Source: Prosopocoilus inquinatus
Taxonomy: Eukaryota > Arthropoda > Insecta > Coleoptera > Lucanidae
Reading direction: 5' to 3'
Length of the DNA stretch: 64,000 bases
NCBI GenBank assembly: GCA_036172665.1
Contig: CM069875.1
Location: forward strand, 20,677,806 to 20,741,805
Shown here: in pieces, positions 1,595 through 63,835 of the stretch
How positions within the stretch are numbered: position 1 is the stretch's first letter
How the letters are laid out: every line of letters begins with the position of its first letter
Program-made: the position numbers and the translations under genes
Notes under the pieces: generated by a model
Databases searched by the model: none
What the model was told of the DNA's origin: nothing
The model's input: the letters and a program-made list of their open reading frames with translations, nothing else

Positions 1595-1608
1595 TTATGT
1601 ACTTATAG
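1595..1608. repeat. Left target-site duplication of the hammerhead array
   Basis: TTATGTACTTATAG here matches 3779-3792 exactly on the far side of the array. The last three bases (TAG) also match the element's own sequence before AAAAATTTTG, so the true duplication could be 11-14 bp. The shared TAG would suit microhomology priming. Confidence 0.85.
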
Positions 1609-1648
1609 AAAAATTTTGTGCAAATCGTTTTTGATTGCAGTGAGAACC

Positions 1649-1713
1649 TCGAGCAGCCTCTGGACAGCTGTTTCAGCCCTGCTTGGGGCTTCTTCAGCAG
1701 AAACGTAGCTCGA
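1649..1713 (-). ncRNA. Type I hammerhead ribozyme, array unit 1
   Basis: Minus-strand copy with the full core: CTGAAGA, stem II AGCCC/GGGCT, GAAA, and cleavage triplet GTC, with the predicted cut between 1663 and 1662. The sequence is the same as the plus-strand copy at 2908-2972, where the fold is described. Confidence 0.85.
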
Positions 1714-1960
1714 CATTCCCACTGCAGACCAAAAACGACTTGCCCAATTTATTCGCAAATGCGATGTAAGAATGATGAACATATAAAACAGCGACATCTT
1801 ACTATCGCTTTTTGACCTAACATTGCAGTAGGATAGACAAATTGAAGCGGGATTTGCTCCTAATGAGTCCCCCATGCAAGGCGGCCATGCTTGCTGTCAT
1901 AGCATAATGAAAGATTTTAGAAAAATTTTGTGCAAATCGTTTTTGATTGCAGTGAGAACC

Positions 1961-2025
1961 TCGAGCAGCCTCTGGACAGCTGTTTCAGCCCTGCTTGGGG
2001 CTTCTTCAGCAGAAACGTAGCTCGA
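1961..2025 (-). ncRNA. Type I hammerhead ribozyme, array unit 2
   Basis: Exactly 312 bp from the previous copy, with identical core and stems. Predicted cut between 1975 and 1974, so a 312-nt monomer would be released between adjacent sites. Confidence 0.85.
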
Positions 2026-2272
2026 CATTCCCACTGCAGACCAAAAACGACTTGCCCAATTTATTCGCAAATGCGATGTAAGAATGATGAACATATAAAA
2101 CAGCGACATCTTACTATCGCTTTTTGACCTAACATTGCAGTAGGATAGACAAATTGAAGCGGGATTTGCTCCTAATGAGTCCCCCATGCAAGGCGGCCAT
2201 GCTTGCTGTCATAGCATAATGAAAGATTTTAGAAAAATTTTGTGCAAATCGTTTTTGATTGCAGTGAGAACC

Positions 2273-2337
2273 TCGAGCAGCCTCTGGACAGCTGTTTCAG
2301 CCCTGCTTGGGGCTTCTTCAGCAGAAACGTAGCTCGA
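2273..2337 (-). ncRNA. Type I hammerhead ribozyme, array unit 3
   Basis: Third minus-strand copy in register. Predicted cut between 2287 and 2286. Core and both stem I helices are intact. Confidence 0.85.
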
Positions 2338-2584
2338 CATTCCCACTGCAGACCAAAAACGACTTGCCCAATTTATTCGCAAATGCGATGTAAGAATGAT
2401 GAACATATAAAACAGCGACATCTTACTATCGCTTTTTGACCTAACATTGCAGTAGGATAGACAAATTGAAGCGGGATTTGCTCCTAATGAGTCCCCCATG
2501 CAAGGCGGCCATGCTTGCTGTCATAGCATAATGAAAGATTTTAGAAAAATTTTGTGCAAATCGTTTTTGATTGCAGTGAGAACC

Positions 2585-2649
2585 TCGAGCAGCCTCTGGA
2601 CAGCTGTTTCAGCCCTGCTTGGGGCTTCTTCAGCAGAAACGTAGCTCGA
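2585..2649 (-). ncRNA. Type I hammerhead ribozyme, array unit 4, next to the inversion
   Basis: Complete minus-strand copy ending only seven bases from the head-to-head junction. Predicted cut between 2599 and 2598. The plus-strand half of the array starts at TCGAGG, inside the 3' strand of the same ribozyme's stem I, so the breakpoint lies at the ribozyme on both sides. Confidence 0.85.
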
Positions 2650-2907
2650 CATTCCCTCGAGGTTCTCACTGCAATCAAAAACGATTTGCACAAAATTTTT
2701 CTAAAATCTTTCATTATGCTATGACAGCAAGCATGGCCGCCTTGCATGGGGGACTCATTAGGAGCAAATCCCGCTTCAATTTGTCTATCCTACTGCAATG
2801 TTAGGTCAAAAAGCGATAGTAAGATGTCGCTGTTTTATATGTTCATCATTCTTACATCGCATTTGCGAATAAATTGGGCAAGTCGTTTTTGGTCTGCAGT
2901 GGGAATG

Positions 2908-2972
2908 TCGAGCTACGTTTCTGCTGAAGAAGCCCCAAGCAGGGCTGAAACAGCTGTCCAGAGGCTGCTCGA
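2908..2972 (+). ncRNA. Type I hammerhead ribozyme, array unit 5 (reference copy)
   Basis: Self-cleaving RNA fold of 65 nt. Stem I distal helix is UCGAGC/GCUCGA, an internal loop UACG/CU follows, then the proximal helix UUUCUG/CAGAGG. Core CUGAAGA fits the CUGANGA consensus. Stem II is AGCCC/GGGCU with loop CAAGCA and the expected purine-pyrimidine closing pair. GAAA follows, then a two-pair stem III with loop AGCU and the cleavage triplet GUC (cut after 2958). All universally conserved hammerhead positions are present. The stem I internal loop and stem II loop are where natural hammerheads make the tertiary contact that speeds cleavage. Such a short stem III is known from Penelope-like and retrozyme hammerheads, which often act as dimers. 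Activity is not shown here. Confidence 0.9.
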
Positions 2973-3219
2973 GGTTCTCACTGCAATCAAAAACGATTTG
3001 CACAAAATTTTTCTAAAATCTTTCATTATGCTATGACAGCAAGCATGGCCGCCTTGCATGGGGGACTCATTAGGAGCAAATCCCGCTTCAATTTGTCTAT
3101 CCTACTGCAATGTTAGGTCAAAAAGCGATAGTAAGATGTCGCTGTTTTATATGTTCATCATTCTTACATCGCATTTGCGAATAAATTGGGCAAGTCGTTT
3201 TTGGTCTGCAGTGGGAATG

Positions 3220-3284
3220 TCGAGCTACGTTTCTGCTGAAGAAGCCCCAAGCAGGGCTGAAACAGCTGTCCAGAGGCTGCTCGA
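3220..3284 (+). ncRNA. Type I hammerhead ribozyme, array unit 6
   Basis: Identical to the 2908 copy, 312 bp downstream. Predicted cut after 3270. With the neighbouring site it delimits the monomer 2959-3270. Confidence 0.85.
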
Positions 3285-3531
3285 GGTTCTCACTGCAATC
3301 AAAAACGATTTGCACAAAATTTTTCTAAAATCTTTCATTATGCTATGACAGCAAGCATGGCCGCCTTGCATGGGGGACTCATTAGGAGCAAATCCCGCTT
3401 CAATTTGTCTATCCTACTGCAATGTTAGGTCAAAAAGCGATAGTAAGATGTCGCTGTTTTATATGTTCATCATTCTTACATCGCATTTGCGAATAAATTG
3501 GGCAAGTCGTTTTTGGTCTGCAGTGGGAATG

Positions 3532-3596
3532 TCGAGCTACGTTTCTGCTGAAGAAGCCCCAAGCAGGGCTGAAACAGCTGTCCAGAGGCTGCTCGA
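3532..3596 (+). ncRNA. Type I hammerhead ribozyme, array unit 7
   Basis: Last complete copy of the array. Predicted cut after 3582. The array then runs 196 bp further and stops inside the next unit at TTTTATATGTT. Confidence 0.85.
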
Positions 3597-3778
3597 GGTT
3601 CTCACTGCAATCAAAAACGATTTGCACAAAATTTTTCTAAAATCTTTCATTATGCTATGACAGCAAGCATGGCCGCCTTGCATGGGGGACTCATTAGGAG
3701 CAAATCCCGCTTCAATTTGTCTATCCTACTGCAATGTTAGGTCAAAAAGCGATAGTAAGATGTCGCTGTTTTATATGT

Positions 3779-3792
3779 TTATGTACTTATAG
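3779..3792. repeat. Right target-site duplication of the hammerhead array
   Basis: TTATGTACTTATAG, a perfect match to 1595-1608. The element sequence just before it departs from the tandem unit here, marking the insertion border. Confidence 0.85.
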
Positions 3793-24433: not shown

Positions 24434-24727
24434 ATGAACAATTTACCAAAAATTTTGTCCAAATCGTTTTTGATTGCAGTGAGAACCTCGAGCAGCCTCT
24501 GGACAGCTGTTTCAGCCCTGCTTGGGGCTTCTTCAGCAGAAACGTAGCTCGACATTCCCACTGCAGACCAAAAACGACTTGTCCAATTTATTCGCAAATG
24601 CGATGTAAGAATGATGAACATATAAAATAGTGACAACTTACTATCGCTTTTTGACCTAACATTGCAGTAGGATAGACAAATTGAAGCGGGATTTGCTCCT
24701 AATGCTATTTTATATGAACAATTTACC
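24434..24727. mobile_element. Hammerhead retrozyme copy with 14-bp target duplication
   Basis: ATGAACAATTTACC occurs at 24,434-24,447 and again at 24,714-24,727. Between them lies one minus-strand repeat unit fragment (24,448 to about 24,704). It is followed by a tiny plus-strand piece, GCTATTTTAT, which matches the terminal bases of the plus-strand half in the large array. Left end AAAAATTTTG and right end TTTTATATG are the same two borders used at 1609 and 3778. Few differences from the array units, so fairly young. Confidence 0.85.
24488..24552 (-). ncRNA. Type I hammerhead ribozyme, single copy
   Basis: All core positions and stems match the 2908 copy. Predicted cut between 24,502 and 24,501. 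As a solitary unit it could not release a monomer by itself. Confidence 0.85.
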
Positions 24728-28081: not shown

Positions 28082-28334
28082 GAAACTAATAAATAGCTTA
28101 ACAGCGATATCTTACAATCACTTCTTGACCTAACATTGCATTAGGATTGACAAATTGAAGCCACTTTGCTACATAATAAGTCATCCCATGTAAGACTCCC
28201 ATGCTTGCTGTCAAAGCGTAATTTAAGTTTGAAAAAAAATAAAAATAGGGCAGAAACAGCTGTACAGATGCTGTTGGAGGGATCCACTGCATTCAAAAAC
28301 GATTTGTAACAAAAATGTTTTGAAATTAATAAAT
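28082..28334. mobile_element. Old hammerhead retrozyme copy, ribozyme truncated
   Basis: A minus-strand part (from about 28,098) joins a plus-strand part that starts inside the ribozyme at AGGGCAGAAACAGCTGTACAG (28,247-28,267). The CUGANGA half is absent, so the ribozyme is dead. The outer ends correspond to the same two borders as the other copies. GAAACTAATAAAT and GAAATTAATAAAT flank it, consistent with a 13-bp duplication with one change. Divergence is much higher than in the array. Confidence 0.7.
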
Positions 28335-31365: not shown

Positions 31366-31797
31366 CTTAAAAATAACAGATAAAATAGCGACATCTTACT
31401 GTACTGTTGCTGCAAGGCGGCCATGCTTGCTGTCAAAGCATAATGAAAATTTTTAGAAAAATTTTGTGCAAATCGTTTTTGATTGCAGTGAAAACCTCGA
31501 GCAGCCTCTGGACAGCTGTTTCAGCCCTGCCTGGGGCTTCTTCAGCAGAGACGTAGCTCGACATTTCCACTGCAAACAAAAACGACTTGTCCAATTTATT
31601 CGCAATTGCGATGTAAGAGTGATGAACAGATAAAATAGCGACATCTTACTATCGCTTTTTGACCTGACATTGCAGTAGAATAGACAAATTGAAGCGGGAT
31701 TTGCTCCTAATAAGCAGGGCTGAAACAGCTGTCCAAAGGCTGCTCGAGGTTTTCAATCAAAAAAACGATTTGCACAAAATTTTTCTTAAAAATAACA
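31366..31797. mobile_element. Hammerhead retrozyme copy, head-to-head, 13-bp duplication
   Basis: CTTAAAAATAACA is repeated at 31,366-31,378 and 31,785-31,797. Inside, a minus-strand segment (31,379 to about 31,709, with an internal deletion of about 100 bp near 31,402) meets a plus-strand segment (about 31,711-31,784) that begins inside stem II of the ribozyme. Here the left border is the TTTTAT end and the right border the ATTTTTCT end, the reverse of the large array. Confidence 0.8.
31497..31561 (-). ncRNA. Type I hammerhead ribozyme, complete
   Basis: The core is intact (CTGAAGA, GAAA, GTC). The stem II loop is CAGGCA instead of CAAGCA. The proximal stem I reads TCTCTG against CAGAGG, turning a G-U pair into C-G and so strengthening the same fold. 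Predicted cut between 31,511 and 31,510. Confidence 0.85.
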
Positions 31798-31899: not shown

Positions 31900-32165
31900 A
31901 ATTGGCTCCCTGTCACTCGGATTCCTTCTACTGCCGACATTTCGTTCTATATTGCAGAAGAACTTCCTCAGTACTGATGCTGGCGGAGGTGGTGCTGCTC
32001 GTTATTCTCGACGACTAACGAGAAGCAGCAGTAAGACCACCAGCAACAGCAGCACCATCGCACCAACAGCAGCACCACCACCACCCCAGCAGCAGCACCA
32101 CCACTCCGGCAGCAATGCTGAGGAAGTTCTTCTGCAATGCATAACGAAATGTTGGCAGAAGCCTG
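31900..32165. repeat. Inverted pair of CTGAGGAAGTTCTTCTGCA motifs with CAG/CCA-rich centre
   Basis: The minus-strand copy at 31,930-31,976 and plus-strand copy at 32,115-32,155 share CTGAGGAAGTTCTTCTGCAA, a GTTCT/AGAAC hairpin and CGAAATGT. This matches the Penelope-type hammerhead-like pattern with one extra base before stem II. Between them lies degenerate trinucleotide DNA (cagcagcacc, ccaccacc). A 91-codon frame over it is low-complexity and not a credible gene. The same motif occurs at the window's right edge. Confidence 0.6.
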
Positions 32166-33380: not shown

Positions 33381-33522
33381 TGTAAATATTAGTAAAATTT
33401 TGTGCCGCCTTGCATGGGGGACTCATTAGGAGCAAATCCCGCTTCAATTTGTCTATCCTACTGCAATGTTAGGTCAAAAAGCGATAGTAAGATGTCGCTA
33501 TTTTATATGTTGTAAATATTAG
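33381..33522. mobile_element. Short hammerhead retrozyme fragment with 11-12 bp duplication
   Basis: TGTAAATATTAG is found at 33,381-33,392 and 33,511-33,522. Inside is a small minus-strand stub (AAAATTTTGTG) followed by plus-strand sequence from GCCGCCTTGCATGG to TTTTATATGTT. Both borders are the family's standard ends. The fragment lacks the ribozyme. The final G of the right duplication is also the first base of the mariner, so the duplication may be 11 bp. Confidence 0.8.
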
Positions 33523-33539: not shown

Positions 33540-34631
33540 GAGTGTTTTTTAGAAAAATAAATAAAATGACAACAACTTCCAACCATCTTTGTTCCAAAAG
33601 CTCAATTCCACGACGATAGAAGATGGGCTCTTTCGAGATAAAAAAACAAAAACTGTTGGCAAGCAGCTTCAACATGGTCGATACCTTCAAACTCCCGCAC
33701 TCTTAAGGTCGGTTATTTAATCACAAGTTAACTCTGACCCTCAGTTTATTGCCATGGAAACAATTATCTTCGTACTTGTTACCATGGAAAGAAACCGAGA
33801 GTTAGGGTTAACCTGTGATTGATAAACCGAGCCTTAGGAAGTGTTCCATTGAGCAGAATAAATGATAATGGGATGGCGCAGGGTCTGGACTATAGGGTGG
33901 ATGAGCCAGCCTAATTCATTCAGCTTTGCCGTAAGCGGTTTTGCGTTATCTTGCGAAAACATTACTTGGTTTCTGTTAACCGATGCAGAATATTTGAGAC
34001 GCAGAGATTCTTGAACTCGGTCCCGTTGCTGACAATAAAGTGCAGCGGTTATGCTACCACCATTTGGAATCATTTCAAAATGAACAATTCCATCTGAATT
34101 CTACCAAACACTTGTGCCAAAAGATTTTTTGTGGTACTGGTAGAGCAGGTTGACCAGGAAAACCACCACCGTGATCTGGATTTTGCAAAAGGATTCATTT
34201 TTTGTCGCTTGTAATGATTCGCCGATAAAATCGTCCATCAAGAGCACTTTGCCGTAATTGACGACATAGGTCGATACGTCGTTGCTCTGTTCAGCCATTA
34301 ATTATCTGGGAACTTGTCGAGACCTTCTGTTCGCTTTTTCAATACGATGAAGATGATTCCCAATGATGGATTTTGACACCTGTAGTTCGGTTGCCAATAT
34401 CCGAACACTAGTCCTTGGATTGCATTCAATGATTTGTCGGAGGTCTTCAAGATTATAATCTAATGGTCTCGGTCGTCTTGAACGATACTTATCTTTAAGA
34501 CCTTCCCCATTCCGAAATCTCGCAAACCATCGCCAACAAGTAGACTCTTTTACCGTTCCCGCACCTTCAGTTCTGCATATATTTCTTGTGGCTGCTGCCG
34601 CTTTCGGTCTTTTTCCATGATAAATAAACAT
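33540..34631 (-). pseudogene. Mariner transposase, inactivated
   Basis: Cut-and-paste transposase of the D,D34D mariner group. The N-terminal helix-turn-helix part (34,631-34,302, 109 codons) includes AAAATRNIC, CWRWFARFRNG and DLRQIIECNPRTSVRILA. After a stop, the catalytic domain continues with changes of frame. The first aspartate survives in TSDKK but the next Trp codon is a stop. A second Trp is TAG near 34,105. The second aspartate is in SQDNAK (about 33,962). The third lies in APSHYH (about 33,865-33,882), where the expected Asp is His. The C-terminus (YRRGIE, QRWLE; about 33,570-33,640) is separated by the MITE. It starts at the ATG inside MFIYHGKR, the usual mariner start region. Dead by several independent lesions. 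Confidence 0.85.
33706..33833. mobile_element. 128-bp palindromic MITE inside the mariner
   Basis: The arms AGG-TCGGTTATTTAATCAC and, reversed, GGCTCGGTTTATCAATCAC continue in parallel through GTTAACYCT and TTTCCATGG to a small loop. TTA flanks both sides (33,703-33,705 and 33,834-33,836), a three-base duplication typical of PIF/Harbinger MITEs. It interrupts mariner coding sequence between SMEHFLR and the C-terminal helix region. Confidence 0.85.
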
Positions 34632-34820
34632 TAACCATTGAAAATTGGTTAAATTCTATTACTATTCTATTACAACTATTCTATCTATTTAACTAAGAAA
34701 TGTCAAATTGTTTCTGAACAAGTATACCGGATATTTTTAAAAACTAACAAAAATTACACATTTATATAATATCATGAAACAGAATGCCACAAAGATGCTC
34801 AAGACTTATTAAACACCCTA

Positions 34821-35504: not shown

Positions 35505-35555
35505 ATAGATTTTAGAAAAATTTTGTGCAAATCGTTTTTGATTGCAGTGAGAACC

Positions 35556-35620
35556 TCGAGCAGCCTCTGGACAGCTGTTTCAGCCCTGCTTGGGGCTTCT
35601 TCAGCAGAAACGTAGCTCGA
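35556..35620 (-). ncRNA. Type I hammerhead ribozyme, left unit
   Basis: Identical to the array ribozyme. Predicted cut between 35,570 and 35,569. Confidence 0.85.
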
Positions 35621-35951
35621 CATTCCCACTGCAGACCAAAAACGACTTGCCCAATTTATTCGCAAATGCGATGTAAAGAATAAACATATAAAATAGCGAC
35701 ATCTTACTATCGCTTTTTGACCTAACATTGTAGTAGGATAGACAAATTGAAGCGGGATTTGCTCCTAATGAGTCCTCTATGCAAGGCGGCCATGCTTGCT
35801 GTCAAAGCATAATATATATATATATGCCATATCCTACTGCAATGTTAGGTCAAAAAGCGATAGTAAGATGTCGCTATTTTATATGTTCATCATTCTTACA
35901 TCGCATTTGCGAATAAATTGGGCAAGTCGTTTTTGGTCTGCAGTGAGAATG

Positions 35952-36016
35952 TCGAGCTACGTTTCTGCTGAAGAAGCCCCAAGCAGGGCTGAAACAGCTG
36001 TCCAGAGGCTGCTCGA
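35952..36016 (+). ncRNA. Type I hammerhead ribozyme, right unit
   Basis: Identical core and stems. Predicted cut after 36,002. A transcript through this locus would contain both ribozymes as complementary strands, which would pair and probably block each other. Confidence 0.85.
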
Positions 36017-36062
36017 GGTTCTCACTGCAATCAAAGACGATTTGCACAAAATTTTTCTAAGG

Positions 36063-39100: not shown

Positions 39101-39434
39101 TACAATAAAATGTGGTCAGAAAGTACAAATTTGAAGTACTAAAATCAACTTACACCTGATAAAAAGGGAACGCCATCAGCGAAAGACGAACAAGACAGGG
39201 AAATAACCTCCACCGAATGACAGATCAGTAGAAAGGGCGCTGAGGTCAACTTCAATGTTGCCATTGGAAGACACTATTCATACTAAAGCGCATTTGATCG
39301 TTGAGAAGAAGAAACGGGTGGAAATTATCGTGTAGAAAAACTTACAGCAGTAGTTTACCATACGCAATACGATTACCAGTCAGTGGCGCAGTCTCGTAAG
39401 CAATTTCGAAATGAGAAGCTAATTTGTAACAAGA

Positions 39435-39895
39435 ATGGCTACGGATGAATTGGTAAAAGAACTACTTGCATCAATGATAGAAGAGCGGACACAACGTAAT
39501 CAGCAGCATCGCGAATTGATTCAAATGCTAATGGGAAGGCAAAATTTCAATTTAGGTGGAGGTGACTCTACAATCGTAAAAGCGTTATCCAGTGTACCCA
39601 CTTTTCAATCGTTTAATCTCGAAGAAGATTGGCGAACGTATCATTCAAGACTTATGCAGCATTTCGAAGTTCATCATCTGTTATCAGCAGAAATTCGTCG
39701 AGCATACTTTTTATCATGGATCAATGATGAAGCGTTTGTATTTTTACAAAAATTATTTGACTCATCTGACATCAGTAAACAAACATTTAGTGCACTTACT
39801 GCAACTTTAACTGATCATTTTAAAGAAAAAATGTATCCAGTGACGGCTCGAATCAAATTTCGCAAGATGCTAATGAAAAAAGATTCTGCTCAAGA
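39435..39895 (+). pseudogene. Gag N-terminal part of the Gypsy remnant
   Basis: It starts at the ATG of MATDELVKEL, 52 bp after the putative primer site. About 150 codons resemble Gypsy-type capsid, with FQSFNLEEDWRTYHSRLMQH and, further on, ALTATLTDHF. The zinc-knuckle nucleocapsid region is missing, and the frame runs straight into a piece of pol, so the present frame is a deletion product and not a natural fusion. Confidence 0.75.
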
Positions 39896-40577
39896 TAAAG
39901 CACTTGAAAAGCCGAAGCAACACATCATTGGTGCAACCACGCTTATACACTACAAGCCAAACTCATTCTGGCAACTGATGCATCTTCGTATTGAAGATCG
40001 TGGCATTAGCGCTGCACTCTCACATCGTGATGAATATGAACAAGAGTACCCAATCGTATTCGCATCCCAAATACAGAACAAGCAAGAATTAGGTTACAGG
40101 CAAATTGAAAAAGAAGCTCTGGGCATCATTTTTGGCACAAAGAAATTTCATACATACCTTCATGGTCGCAATTTTGAATTTCTTACGGACCACAAACCGT
40201 TGGTACCAATTTTTCATCCAGACAAGAAAATACCTGCAACATCATTTTAGCGTCTTGCTCGCTGGGCTGTTTTACTTATGGCTTATCGCTATACTATACG
40301 TTATCGATCAACCGACAAGCATGTAAATGCTGACGCACTCTCACGACTTCCGACAGGTGCAGACACCTTGTTTGATGAAGATCAGACAACACATATGTTT
40401 CTAGAAAACATTGTAGAAGAAACTGATTTTCCAATTGATATAGAATGCATTGCAAAAGTAACAAGCCAAGATCAGGTTCTCCAAACTGTAATATGTTATG
40501 CGAACATGGTTGACCAGAAAAGCTACCATCGAAACATAGCAATTTACAGCCGTTTTTTATTCGTCGTGACACAATAG
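39896..40577 (+). pseudogene. RNase H and connection region of Gypsy pol
   Basis: After the junction (ALEKPKQHI) comes the RT-RNase H boundary and then RNase H, with RQIEKEALGIIFGTKKFHTY and LTDHKPL. The catalytic ATDAS motif is encoded in another frame at about 39,971-39,985, so two compensating frameshifts flank it and the open frame carries unrelated residues there. A TAG at about 40,248 replaces a sense codon, after which the same frame continues with RWAVLLMAYRY and NADALSRLP before stopping at 40,577. Confidence 0.8.
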
Positions 40578-40889: not shown

Positions 40890-41876
40890 AGTACTAGAAC
40901 TTCTTCACGATGATCACTGGAGAATTGTTCGGATGAAGCAAATTGCCCAGCGATATTGTTGGTGGCCGAAAATCGAAAAGGATCTGGAAAAACTCATCAA
41001 AGATTTTGCTCCATACCAACATAATGCTACGAATCCTACTCGAACGTACGTTTCAAATGTGACTACTATCTGATAGTAATAAACGCTTATTATTCAACAT
41101 TTCCTGTCATTGCAACTGTTCTTGACATTTCGACGCAAACTACAATTGAAGCTCTCCGAAATATTTTTTTTTAGAAGGACTACCGGAAATAATCGTGTCA
41201 GATATTGGAACACAATTTACTTCGAAAACGTTCAAGAAATTTTGCGAAAGGAATAGCATCGCCCACATCACAGTTGCACCTTTTCATTCCGCTTCAAAGT
41301 GTGAAAAACTATTGTACAGATATCGCACGACACCAAATCCACAAAGTAGAAAGTCGCCCACAGAGCTTCTACACAGTCGCAACTACCACACAAAATTTTC
41401 CAATTATGTTGAAAGCTCCTCACTACAAACCCTTTCAGGTGTTTCGACAACAAGATTTAAAATCAATGATCCAGTTTATATGAAACTATACGCAAATAAT
41501 TCGCATTCGTGAATTAAACACGAATGCGATTATTTGTGGATTAAAGCACGTATAATTTAAGGAATTGGTAAGACGATGAATCTTGTCAGCATAATCAGAA
41601 ATATTTAGAACACATCGACGACATCAAAATCAGTTGCGTCAAGCCACAAATTGCAGTTCTGTTCCCAACTCAGAAAACGTCGACGATGATTCTTCCAATC
41701 TTGCTTCTATTTTGCGAGAGTAATATGAAATTCATCAAGAGAAGCTATTAGATGCAACTGCAAGAGTTCTGTACCGCTACAAGAAAAAATTCTGATCCTC
41801 CTATTTCAGCACCGACTGTTCGACGTTACCATCGTCATCGGCTTCCACCAGTTCGTTATGTTCGCGGAAGTTGAAC
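40890..41876 (+). pseudogene. Integrase of the Gypsy remnant
   Basis: The H2C2 zinc-binding region reads LLHDDHWRIVRMKQIAQRY followed by CWWPKIEKDLEKLI. The two histidines remain, but the C..C pair is changed to F..Y. The catalytic core is broken by frameshifts; DIGTQFTSKTFKKFCERNSI at 41,201-41,260 holds the second acidic residue, and a following APFHSAS segment runs into deleted sequence before the Glu. The C-terminal tail ends with RRYHRHRLPPVRY near 41,866. Non-functional. Confidence 0.75.
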
Positions 41877-44940: not shown

Positions 44941-45372
44941 CTCCCCTTTTACTTGAAGACAATCAGAGTTAACTGATATCGTTTACATAAAATATGCACA
45001 TATCTTATACCGCAGATGTACGTGACGTAATGACCAAAAGTCCATAAAATTTAAATGACTCCGTACTTCACTAGGGTGCCAAACAAGTGATGTCAGTATT
45101 TTCACGCTCTTTCCAATTACCATTTCTTTTAAATCGCGAATTAATTAATTGCCCTAACACTTAACACAATTACCCACTTATGTGTAAACTTGTACAGATA
45201 CAACAGCGACATCCTATGATCGCTTTTTGACCTAACATTGCAGTAAGATAGACAAATTGAAGCGGATTTGCTATCTAATAAGTCCCCCATGCAATGCGGC
45301 CATGCTTGCTATGAAAGCATAATGAAAGTTTTAAAAATTTTGTTGCAAATCATTTTGATTGCAGTGAAAACC

Positions 45373-45424
45373 TCGAGCAGCCTCTGTACAGCTGTTTCAG
45401 CCCTGTTTGGGTCTTCGTCAGCAG
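45373..45424 (-). ncRNA. Hammerhead ribozyme, 5' stem I missing
   Basis: CTGACGA, a stem II with one bulged base (GACCC/GGGC), GAAAC and cleavage triplet GTA are present. The inversion junction removes the upstream strand of stem I beyond CTG. Probably inactive. Confidence 0.65.
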
Positions 45425-45566
45425 CAAATTCGCTTCAATTTGTCTATCCTACTGCAATGTCAGGTCAAAAAACGATCGTAGGATGTCGTTGTATTATCTG
45501 TTCAGCACTATTACATGGCAATTGCGAATAAATTAGACAAGTCGTTTTTGGTTTGAAGTGGGAATG

Positions 45567-45631
45567 TCGAGCTACGTCTCTGCTGACGAAGCCCCAGACA
45601 GGGCTTAAACAGTTGTATAGAGGCTGCTCGA
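45567..45631 (+). ncRNA. Hammerhead ribozyme with broken core
   Basis: Stem I and stem II pair well and CTGACGA is intact. GAAA is replaced by TAAA, changing the invariant G12, and stem III reads ACAGTTGTA. Predicted inactive. Confidence 0.75.
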
Positions 45632-45680
45632 GGTTTTCACTGCAATCAAAACGATTTGCAACAAAATTTGTAAATTTGTA

Positions 45681-63539: not shown

Positions 63540-63835
63540 AGATATTTGAGAAATTTTGTTGCAAATAGATTTTGGATTGCATTGAATTCCTCGAGCAGCC
63601 TCTGTATGTACAGTTGTTTCAGCCATATTTGTAGCTTCATCAGCAGAAGCGTAGCACGACAGTTCTGCTACAAACCAAAACAATTCGACCAAGGTTAATC
63701 ACAATTGCAATGTAATAGTAATGAATAGTTTAAACAGCGACATCCTACGATCGCTTTTTGTCAATCTTTATGCAATGTCAGGTCAAAAAGCAATCGTAGG
63801 ATGTCGCTGTTTAAACTATTCATTAAACATTTGAA
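63540..63835. mobile_element. Old hammerhead retrozyme copy
   Basis: A minus-strand part (about 63,549-63,770) joins a shorter plus-strand part (about 63,775-63,820) that mirrors its end, GCGACATCCTACGATCGCTT. Borders AAATTTTGTTGC and GTCGCTGTTTAAACT correspond to the usual two ends. ATATTTGA and ACATTTGA outside may be a worn target duplication. Confidence 0.7.
63591..63659 (-). ncRNA. Hammerhead ribozyme, CTGATGA core, stem I insertion
   Basis: The core is CTGATGA, the commonest natural form. Stem II is AGCTA/TGGCT with loop CAAATA, so pairing is kept although three bases differ from the array. GAAACAACTGTA gives a weakened stem III and cleavage triplet GTA. Four extra bases (CATA or ACAT) sit next to the cleavage site, and one distal stem I pair is lost. 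Activity is doubtful. Confidence 0.7.

What the first reader, a model, noticed from the sequence alone, without database searches (positions are those of the whole stretch)
1609..3778. Tandem 312-bp units each with a complete type I hammerhead ribozyme
Seen: seven ribozymes at exactly 312-bp spacing, each with CUGANGA, a paired stem II, GAAA, A-U closing of stem III, GUC, and two helices in stem I around an internal loop. Known: tandem hammerhead monomers of a few hundred bases define retrozymes, whose transcripts self-cleave and circularise. Inference: this is an insect retrozyme family, predicted to give a 312-nt circular RNA (for example 2959-3270). I do not know whether this family has been described.
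Basis: partly seen in the sequence, partly recalled or inferred. Interest (0 to 1): 0.93.

Follow-up and report, generated by a model that had tools for sequence, protein, structure and literature searches.

The report
Two-armed insertions of hammerhead retrozyme
A 312-base RNA with a predicted self-cutting ribozyme has been copied back into this animal genome dozens of times, nearly always as two outward-pointing strings of repeats that begin at two fixed places in the RNA, the same kind of insertion that a Penelope-type retrotransposon leaves in the same genome, which points to the machine that spreads it.

Summary
The seven type I hammerheads are real, but not in one direct tandem array. 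The locus is a back-to-back insertion: 3.37 units on the minus strand (1606-2656), 3.60 on the plus strand (2656-3779), between 14-bp target-site duplications. It is one copy of a dispersed retrozyme family: eight insertions in the window, 31 further events at 38 fetched loci of the same genome (duplicates collapsed).

All 35 two-armed events diverge. In 33 of 35 one outer end lies at unit position 52-71 (s1), the other at 192-209 (s2), counted from the predicted cut; inner junctions are scattered. The rule was noted from the window before the genome search answered.

A Penelope-like element (PLE; reverse transcriptase plus GIY-YIG) in this genome leaves a like footprint: 46 of 46 opposite-strand neighbours diverge; 16 of 21 copies seen whole pair one short with one tail end.

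Best reading: a metazoan retrozyme spread by PLE protein, with two starts on one circular or multimeric RNA, one per cut target strand. Retrozymes and the PLE suggestion are published; I found no description of this footprint in the papers searched. RNA circles and cleavage are untested.

The parts
1595..1608 (.). left target-site duplication TTATGTACTTATAG (overlaps the element by 3 bp)
   Evidence: 14/14 match with 3779-3792
1606..2656 (-). minus arm, 3.37 laps of the 312-bp unit, 100% identical copies; outer end at unit ~57 (s1)
2656..3779 (+). plus arm, 3.60 laps of the 312-bp unit, 100% identical copies; outer end at unit ~197 (s2)
3779..3792 (.). right target-site duplication TTATGTACTTATAG
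2656..2656 (.). inner junction, unit 255 (-) joined to unit 10 (+), 1 bp overlap
1643..1713 (-). type I hammerhead, core 1697-1663
1955..2025 (-). type I hammerhead, core 2009-1975
2267..2337 (-). type I hammerhead, core 2321-2287
2579..2649 (-). type I hammerhead, core 2633-2599
2908..2978 (+). type I hammerhead, core 2924-2958, predicted cut after 2958
3220..3290 (+). type I hammerhead, core 3236-3270, predicted cut after 3270
3532..3602 (+). type I hammerhead, core 3548-3582, predicted cut after 3582
24447..24716 (.). insertion B: s1 left, s2 right (plus arm of only about 10 nt, recognised by eye), duplication ATGAACAATTTACC on both sides
28095..28326 (.). insertion C (old): s2 left, s1 right, duplication 12/13
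31375..31790 (.). insertion D: s2 left, s1 right, duplication 13/13; about 70 nt of the unit missing inside the minus arm
33394..33511 (.). insertion E: s1 left (minus arm of about 12 nt, recognised by eye), s2 right, duplication 12/12
35507..36060 (.). insertion F: s1 on both sides, no duplication (exception to the rule)
45191..45669 (.). insertion G: s2 left, s1 right, duplication 11/12
63552..63823 (.). insertion H (old, about 77% identical): s1 left, s2 right; degraded duplication by eye (11/14), not found by the script

Best explanation
The locus is an insertion of a metazoan retrozyme, a non-coding element whose 312-nt RNA carries one type I hammerhead and no protein gene. Proposed cycle: tandem copies are transcribed and cut by the hammerheads; units may be closed into circles; the protein of a Penelope-like element takes the RNA in trans. 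It cuts both target strands about 13 nt apart, leaving 3' overhangs. Two reverse-transcriptase protomers start at two fixed internal RNA sites, s1 (about 57 nt after the predicted cut, end of ACAAAAUUUUU) and s2 (about 197 nt after it, end of UUUUAUAUGUU), one on each target 3' end. Each cDNA runs from a few nucleotides to 8 unbroken laps round or along the template. The two cDNA ends are joined in the middle, often through short complementary stretches, giving diverging arms. SHOWN from sequence: diverging arms, two fixed outer ends, their one-plus-one pairing, duplications, passage through the predicted cut position, multi-lap arms, agreement of the two arms at two diagnostic sites, excess microhomology at the inner join, a like footprint in the genome's PLE. 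INFERRED: cleavage, circularity, trans use of PLE protein, dimer action.
For: Window: 7 of 8 insertions pair s1 with s2 (rule written down). Genome, fetched: of 27 two-armed events (duplicates collapsed) 27 diverge and 26 pair s1 with s2; one more event met by chance in L048 also pairs s2 and s1, with a 14-bp duplication by eye. In the table 68 of 68 outer ends lie in the s1 or s2 range (45-75, 185-212, set by me) but only 10 of 65 inner ends (19% expected). Duplications score above the 99th percentile of 1,122 cross-paired flanks in 27 of 34 events. 47 of 68 arms exceed one lap (my count). Arms of one insertion agree at diagnostic sites u75 (17 of 20, 9.6 expected, p 0.0004) and u216 (18 of 19, 12.1 expected, p 0.002). 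Inner joins share 3 or more exact bp in 14 of 27 (null 6%). PLE in the same genome: RVT_1 7.5e-14 and GIY-YIG 6.9e-7, frames up to 788 aa, copies mostly 97-99.6% identical, own hammerhead with a palindromic stem III (by eye); among 150 scored of 2,232 GIY-YIG candidates 46 of 46 opposite-strand neighbours within 8 kb diverge; 16 of 21 copies seen whole have one short and one tail end, duplications 11-18 bp. Literature: an Anolis PLE protein cleaves and extends both strands in vitro and starts at two internal RNA sites (PMC11167929, section 3 read); inverted pLTRs with a tail on one of them (PMC3846280, passages).
Against: No significant sequence similarity between the unit and the PLE start-site region (P 0.485 for the whole region, 0.373 downstream of the hammerhead); the s1-s2 distance is 140 nt against about 40 in the PLE. 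Exceptions: winF is s1/s1, the second L032 event is s2/s2, four events are one-armed (L022, L023, L026, L034); L022 has a neighbouring s2-ended piece that I read as an older insertion, and counted otherwise it would be one more s2/s2 case. Of the 21 PLE copies seen whole, five depart: L058 two tail ends, L050 and L061 with a second arm that ends inside the element, L053 and L063 one-armed. Strict copying of one monomer circle is not met everywhere: among insertions with three or more laps covering the site, laps are mixed at u75 in 6 of 19, at u216 in 2 of 16, at u186 in 15 of 26, so a multimeric or mixed template, template switching or later gene conversion is needed in part. Arm agreement is not significant at u186 (17 of 24, p 0.07), u110 and u273. 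The PLE family that supplies protein is not identified; other GIY-YIG families exist here. In the Anolis assay hammerhead cleavage was not needed for insertion. Nothing here tests RNA or protein activity.
Confidence: 0.74

Rival explanations
1. A LINE-type retrotransposon mobilises the retrozyme RNA, and the inversions are ordinary twin priming.
For: Diverging arms, duplications of 12-14 bp and microhomology at the inner join fit twin priming as known for L1 (recalled). NAR 2020 names LINEs as possible partners.
Against: 35 of 39 events are two-armed and in 33 of 35 one end is s1 and the other s2; recalled twin priming inverts a minority of insertions and has one variable outer end. I saw no A-tail at the ends. 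A PLE with a like footprint is present.
Confidence: 0.1
2. The template is an uncut linear multimeric transcript of an older array (or a mixture of RNAs), not one circle; PLE protein still does the copying. This is a variant of the main reading and overlaps with it.
For: Laps are mixed within an insertion at u75 in 6 of 19, u216 in 2 of 16 and u186 in 15 of 26 insertions. In the Anolis PLE work uncleaved RNA was the dominant substrate.
Against: At u75 in 13 of 19 and at u216 in 14 of 16 insertions all covering laps agree; window array A has about seven identical units. Homogeneous source arrays could also explain this.
Confidence: 0.4
3. The structure is a DNA-level foldback or satellite expansion with fixed ends, not retrotransposition.
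For: Fixed ends and short duplications also occur in DNA transposons; tandem repeats grow by unequal exchange (recalled).
Against: Inner junctions and lap numbers differ from insertion to insertion, so each was made anew; the two ends are different sequences, not inverted repeats of each other; no Pfam match for the 103-aa frame and no codon-position bias.
Confidence: 0.04
4. Assembly or library artefact (fold-back reads) made the inverted arrays.
For: Perfect inverted repeats are a known long-read artefact (recalled).
Against: 35 two-armed events with different inner junctions, most with duplications in their own flanks; old diverged copies C, G and H show the same layout.
Confidence: 0.02

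Closest known systems
Metazoan non-LTR retrozymes (Cervera and de la Pena 2020, PMC7229834)
   Same: Type I hammerhead in repeats of a few hundred bp, dispersed, several units per copy, low GC, duplications longer than 4 bp, highly self-paired RNA, no protein; the paper mentions insects among carriers
   Different: Here 35 of 39 events are two diverging arms with two fixed outer ends; the main text of the paper has no occurrence of 'inverted' or 'twin priming' (supplements not read)
Penelope-like elements with hammerheads and a 'tail' (PMC11167929, PMC3846280)
   Same: Diverging inverted copies, an end with and an end without the tail, internal start sites downstream of a hammerhead, duplications, AT-rich targets
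   Different: The retrozyme has no reverse transcriptase or endonuclease, a unit of 312 nt, start sites 140 nt apart (about 40 in the PLE here), a fuller hammerhead, no shown sequence homology
pDo500 satellite of Dolichopoda cave crickets (Rojas 2000; paper not held, seen only in the reference list of PMC7229834)
   Same: Insect repeat family with a hammerhead
   Different: Sequence not compared; size known to me only from memory
Plant LTR retrozymes (PMC4918200, search listing only; features as told in PMC7229834)
   Same: Hammerhead retroelement spread through circular RNA
   Different: Type III hammerheads, LTRs, primer-binding site, 600-800 nt circles, 4-bp duplications

Membership tests
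metazoan non-LTR retrozyme | type I hammerhead with intact core and paired stems | tested here: met
   11 descriptor hits, 0 in 20 shuffles; Rfam gathering score not reached
metazoan non-LTR retrozyme | unit of about 150-450 bp in several copies per locus | tested here: met
   312 bp; arms of up to 8 unbroken laps, but some arms much shorter than one lap
metazoan non-LTR retrozyme | GC below 50%, no encoded protein | tested here: met
   136 of 312 G+C in the position-wise majority; no Pfam match for the 103-aa frame; no codon-position bias in 149 rare substitutions, 45/46/58
metazoan non-LTR retrozyme | target-site duplication longer than 4 bp | tested here: met
   11-17 bp in the 27 of 34 events over the null threshold
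metazoan non-LTR retrozyme | self-paired RNA | tested here: met
   circular fold -112.6 kcal/mol, z -6.5 against 200 shuffles, 65% paired
metazoan non-LTR retrozyme | self-cleavage and linear plus circular RNA in tissue | not testable with these tools
   no RNA data
metazoan non-LTR retrozyme | simple head-to-tail tandem genomic arrays | tested here: not met
   two diverging arms in 35 of 39 events; head-to-tail only inside each arm. This describes published copies rather than defining the family
PLE (the proposed helper) | reverse transcriptase plus GIY-YIG endonuclease in one frame | tested here: met
PLE (the proposed helper) | hammerhead, two end sites (short and tail), inverted copies | tested here: met
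   16 of 21 copies seen whole
PLE (as family of the 312-bp element itself) | encodes reverse transcriptase and endonuclease | tested here: not met
   non-coding unit
retrozyme mobilised by PLE | shared protein-binding sequence with the PLE RNA | tested here: inconclusive
   best local match 18 points, P 0.373-0.485; binding could be structural

The most novel reading that the evidence does not exclude
One RNA, two starts, two target strands: a PLE-type reverse-transcriptase dimer engages two different start sites on the same RNA, one protomer per cut strand, so a complete insertion has one s1 and one s2 end. The retrozyme is a minimal parasite of that dimer: a ring (or multimer) presenting both sites, which lets both protomers run lap after lap.
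Probability: 0.46. Interest if true: 0.82.

Novelty: new variant of a known kind. Interest (0 to 1): 0.74.

Why it matters
Which enzyme spreads animal retrozymes is an open question in the papers I saw: one 2020 paper names LINEs or PLEs as candidates, another of that year says that the repeats show no motif from which to deduce it. The footprint described here argues for a PLE in this genome and gives start sites to test in vitro. It also suggests a rule for PLEs themselves, that the two known start sites are used as a pair, one per target strand. Rfam's curated thresholds miss this ribozyme, so such families are easily overlooked.

Tried and rejected
Shared sequence between the unit and the PLE start region: an eye-catching match (TCGAGG...TTCTCACT) was no better than shuffles, rejected. 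A coding role for the 103-aa frame: no relatives (5 candidates, none significant), no Pfam match, no codon-position bias, rejected. Relatives in viral contigs: 0 exact matches, 9 pattern matches none confirmed by tblastn. Within- versus between-insertion divergence as a test of circularity was uninformative, because copies diverge about equally from one source and partial laps add alignment-end noise; replaced by counts of shared variants. A single-monomer-circle template for all insertions: not upheld. A regular hairpin 10-12 nt before each start site was seen by eye only and not tested. Copy number is only a lower bound (209 candidates, 40 scored).

Rows dropped or hand-set: L027, L028, L029, L042-L046 and L033 left out as duplicates or a recombinant of L023, L024, L018, L041 and L032 (by their flanks). 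The second L032 event and the four one-armed events are not in that table; their six outer ends also lie in the two ranges. One-armed status is by eye.

Full report
1. The observation. Tandem Repeats Finder gives two 312-bp arrays, 1606-2656 and 2656-3779, both 100% self-identical. They are reverse complements of one another: 3.37 laps on the minus strand, then 3.60 on the plus strand, meeting at 2656. Seven hammerhead cores are present, three plus and four minus. A descriptor with CTGANGA, stem II of at least 4 bp, GAAA, an A-U closed stem III, UH and at least 4 bp of stem I finds them, plus four in other copies, and nothing in 20 shuffles of the window. Rfam shows nothing at its gathering score and a sub-threshold Hammerhead_HH9 match of 14.5 bits in each of the seven places. 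The unit folds far better than its shuffles (-112.6 kcal/mol, z -6.5). In an old copy (H) stem II reads AGCUA/UGGCU instead of AGCCC/GGGCU, with one pair changed on both sides (read); another copy (G, minus arm) has a mismatch there, so selection on every copy is not implied.

2. More copies in the window. BLAST of the unit finds seven further insertions: B 24447-24716, C 28095-28326, D 31375-31790, E 33394-33511, F 35507-36060, G 45191-45669, H 63552-63823. Reading their ends gave a rule, written in the notebook before the genome search answered: the insertions consist of two arms whose RNA 3' ends face outwards, and the outer ends fall at two unit positions only. Counting from the first base after the predicted cut, these are s1 (52-63 in the window, after ACAAAAUUUUU) and s2 (192-198, after UUUUAUAUGUU). 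Seven of eight insertions have one of each; F has s1 twice. The small second arms of B and E were recognised by eye. Duplications of 12-14 bp flank A, B, C, D, E and G (C and G with one mismatch); for H only a degraded one is visible by eye; F has none.

3. Test in the whole genome. The window lies in a 650-Mb genome of 173 contigs; a first look found 209 candidate places, 40 were scored. I fetched the 38 places listed outside the window and extended three. After collapsing duplicates there are 31 events: 27 two-armed and 4 one-armed (L022, L023, L026, L034). All 27 diverge; 26 pair s1 with s2, and one (second event of L032, beside a microsatellite, no duplication) is s2/s2. L022 has a neighbouring s2-ended piece, 89% identical, which I read as an older insertion; read otherwise it is one more s2/s2 case. 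With the window that is 33 of 35; if each end chose its site freely with probability one half, the chance of 33 or more is about 2e-8 (arithmetic). In the table of 34 events, 68 of 68 outer ends lie in the two ranges (45-75 and 185-212, set; actual values 52-71 and 192-209), against 10 of 65 inner ends, where 19% is expected. Some end positions include bases shared with the duplication. Duplications exceed the 99th percentile of 1,122 cross-pairings of unrelated flanks in 27 of 34 events; winC, winF, winG, winH, L013b, L016 and L021 do not. One more event, met by chance in a locus fetched for another reason (L048), also fits, with a 14-bp duplication by eye.

4. What the arms say about the template. 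Arms starting at s1 and longer than 57 nt run through the predicted cut, so the template was continuous there; 47 of 68 arms exceed one lap (L032's by adding two blocks); the longest unbroken one has 8.06 laps, 10.8 if a second block 203 bp further on is added (L030). A circle or a multimer is required. The two arms of one insertion agree at diagnostic sites more often than chance at u75 (17 of 20) and u216 (18 of 19), as expected if both were copied from one RNA or one source; at u186 (17 of 24), u110 and u273 the excess is not significant. Against a single monomer circle everywhere: among insertions with at least three covering laps, laps are mixed at u75 in 6 of 19 (L012, L015, L021, L024, L031, L039), at u216 in 2 of 16 and at u186 in 15 of 26. 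Across insertions, 148 variants are in one lap only, 27 in some laps, 19 in all, 9 of these 19 covered by both arms. The middle joins share at least 2 exact bp in 16 of 27 cases and at least 3 in 14 of 27, against 17% and 6% for random joins; 6 of 27 have filler. This fits annealing of the two cDNA ends; the long overlaps of L010 and L015 are imperfect, with exact runs of 5 and 7.

5. The helper. A GIY-YIG search of the genome scored 150 of 2,232 candidates, many with the same score and frames of up to 788 aa. A representative (L066, partial frame of 601 aa) matches RVT_1 and GIY-YIG, so it is a Penelope-like element; among its 120 listed relatives the closest named ones are from beetles (Tribolium, Aromia, Molorchus), then a springtail and mosquitoes. 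It carries its own hammerhead, CTGAAGA-stem II-GAAA with a palindromic AUACGUAU stem III comparable to the retrozyme's ACAGCUGU (by eye). Its copies end at two sites, by hand count about 46 and 85 nt after the predicted cut; the second distance resembles the 85-92 nt that follow from the figures given for the Anolis element (start at 111-118, cut at 26). Among the 150 hits, 46 opposite-strand neighbours within 8 kb all diverge and none converge. I fetched 13 close pairs and had 20 loci from the search, 15 of them of the L066 family. In 21 copies both sides are in view: 16 have one short and one tail end, duplications 11-18 bp, some with one mismatch; L058 has two tail ends and the same flank on both sides; L050 and L061 have a second arm that ends inside the element; L053 and L063 are one-armed. 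In the other seven the second side lies outside the fetched stretch or was cut by it. The 13 were chosen for being diverging pairs, so they test the ends, not the direction. Duplications are AT-rich in both families (79% in 28 retrozyme, 75% in 13 PLE cases, window 67%, both lists chosen by me).

6. Reading. The retrozyme shares with the PLE of its own genome the diverging arms, the pairing of two start sites, the duplication length and the AT-rich targets. The published Anolis PLE protein cleaves and extends both strands and starts at two internal sites, which could produce such copies. I therefore take PLE protein acting in trans as the most likely mover. The duplication geometry implies that both target strands end in 3' overhangs of about 13 nt that serve as primers (inference). 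What is missing is a shared binding sequence (negative) and any biochemical test.

7. Novelty. Metazoan retrozymes, including a mention of insects, and the suggestion that PLEs move them are in print (PMC7229834, sections 13, 14 and 17 read). Another 2020 paper says that the repeats show no motif to deduce the partner (PMC7761336, passages), and a 2024 review repeats LINEs or PLEs (PMC11722881, passages). The tail on one of two inverted PLE repeats is known (PMC3846280, passages). Searches for retrozyme with head-to-head, inverted repeat, twin priming, Penelope, insect or target-site terms (listings only) showed me no title or abstract describing this footprint for retrozymes; subscription papers and supplements were not seen. 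Hence a new variant of a known kind: a new family, with an insertion architecture that I did not find described but that can be interpreted.

Noticed in passing
unit position 186 (just after the hairpin AGCGAUA..UGUCGCU), 15 of 26 insertions with three or more covering laps, e.g. L016, L017, L018, L023, L030, L035, L037: This site is G in some laps and A in others of the same insertion, more often than the diagnostic sites u75 (6 of 19) and u216 (2 of 16). RNA editing, template switching or gene conversion could explain it.
   Followed up: partly
retrozyme copies, 149 rare substitutions: A>G exceeds T>C on the RNA sense strand (28 against 12), which might reflect A-to-I editing of the rod-like RNA before copying; G>A (24) and C>T (22) are also common.
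   Followed up: partly
window 31971(-), 32118(+), 63998(-): A second repeated motif CTGAGGA-AGTTCTTCTGCA..GAAA with a hammerhead-like core, in a diverging pair at 31928-32161; the stretch also has an open frame, so it may be chance.
   Followed up: partly
L020, L023/L027, L022, L048: Some retrozyme insertions lie inside or near Penelope-like sequences: L020 interrupts a PLE-like frame (37% and 32% identity to the L066 protein), L023 lies within about 40 bp of a PLE-type hammerhead, L022 has one some 570 bp away, L048 lies some 360 bp from a GIY-YIG hit.
   Followed up: partly
L041-L046 (contig C11, 25.82-27.27 Mb): Six nearly identical copies of one insertion with identical flanks: a segmental duplication carrying the retrozyme.
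   Followed up: no
window 34302-34655(-), 39423-40250(+), 41150-41512(+): Remnants of a mariner-type transposase (HTH_48) and a Gypsy-type element (RT_RNaseH; rve below its cut-off).
   Followed up: no
L049, L051, L052, L057: GIY-YIG loci outside the L066 family with other hammerhead-like motifs (CTGATGA or CTGAAGA cores), so more than one PLE could be the helper.
   Followed up: no
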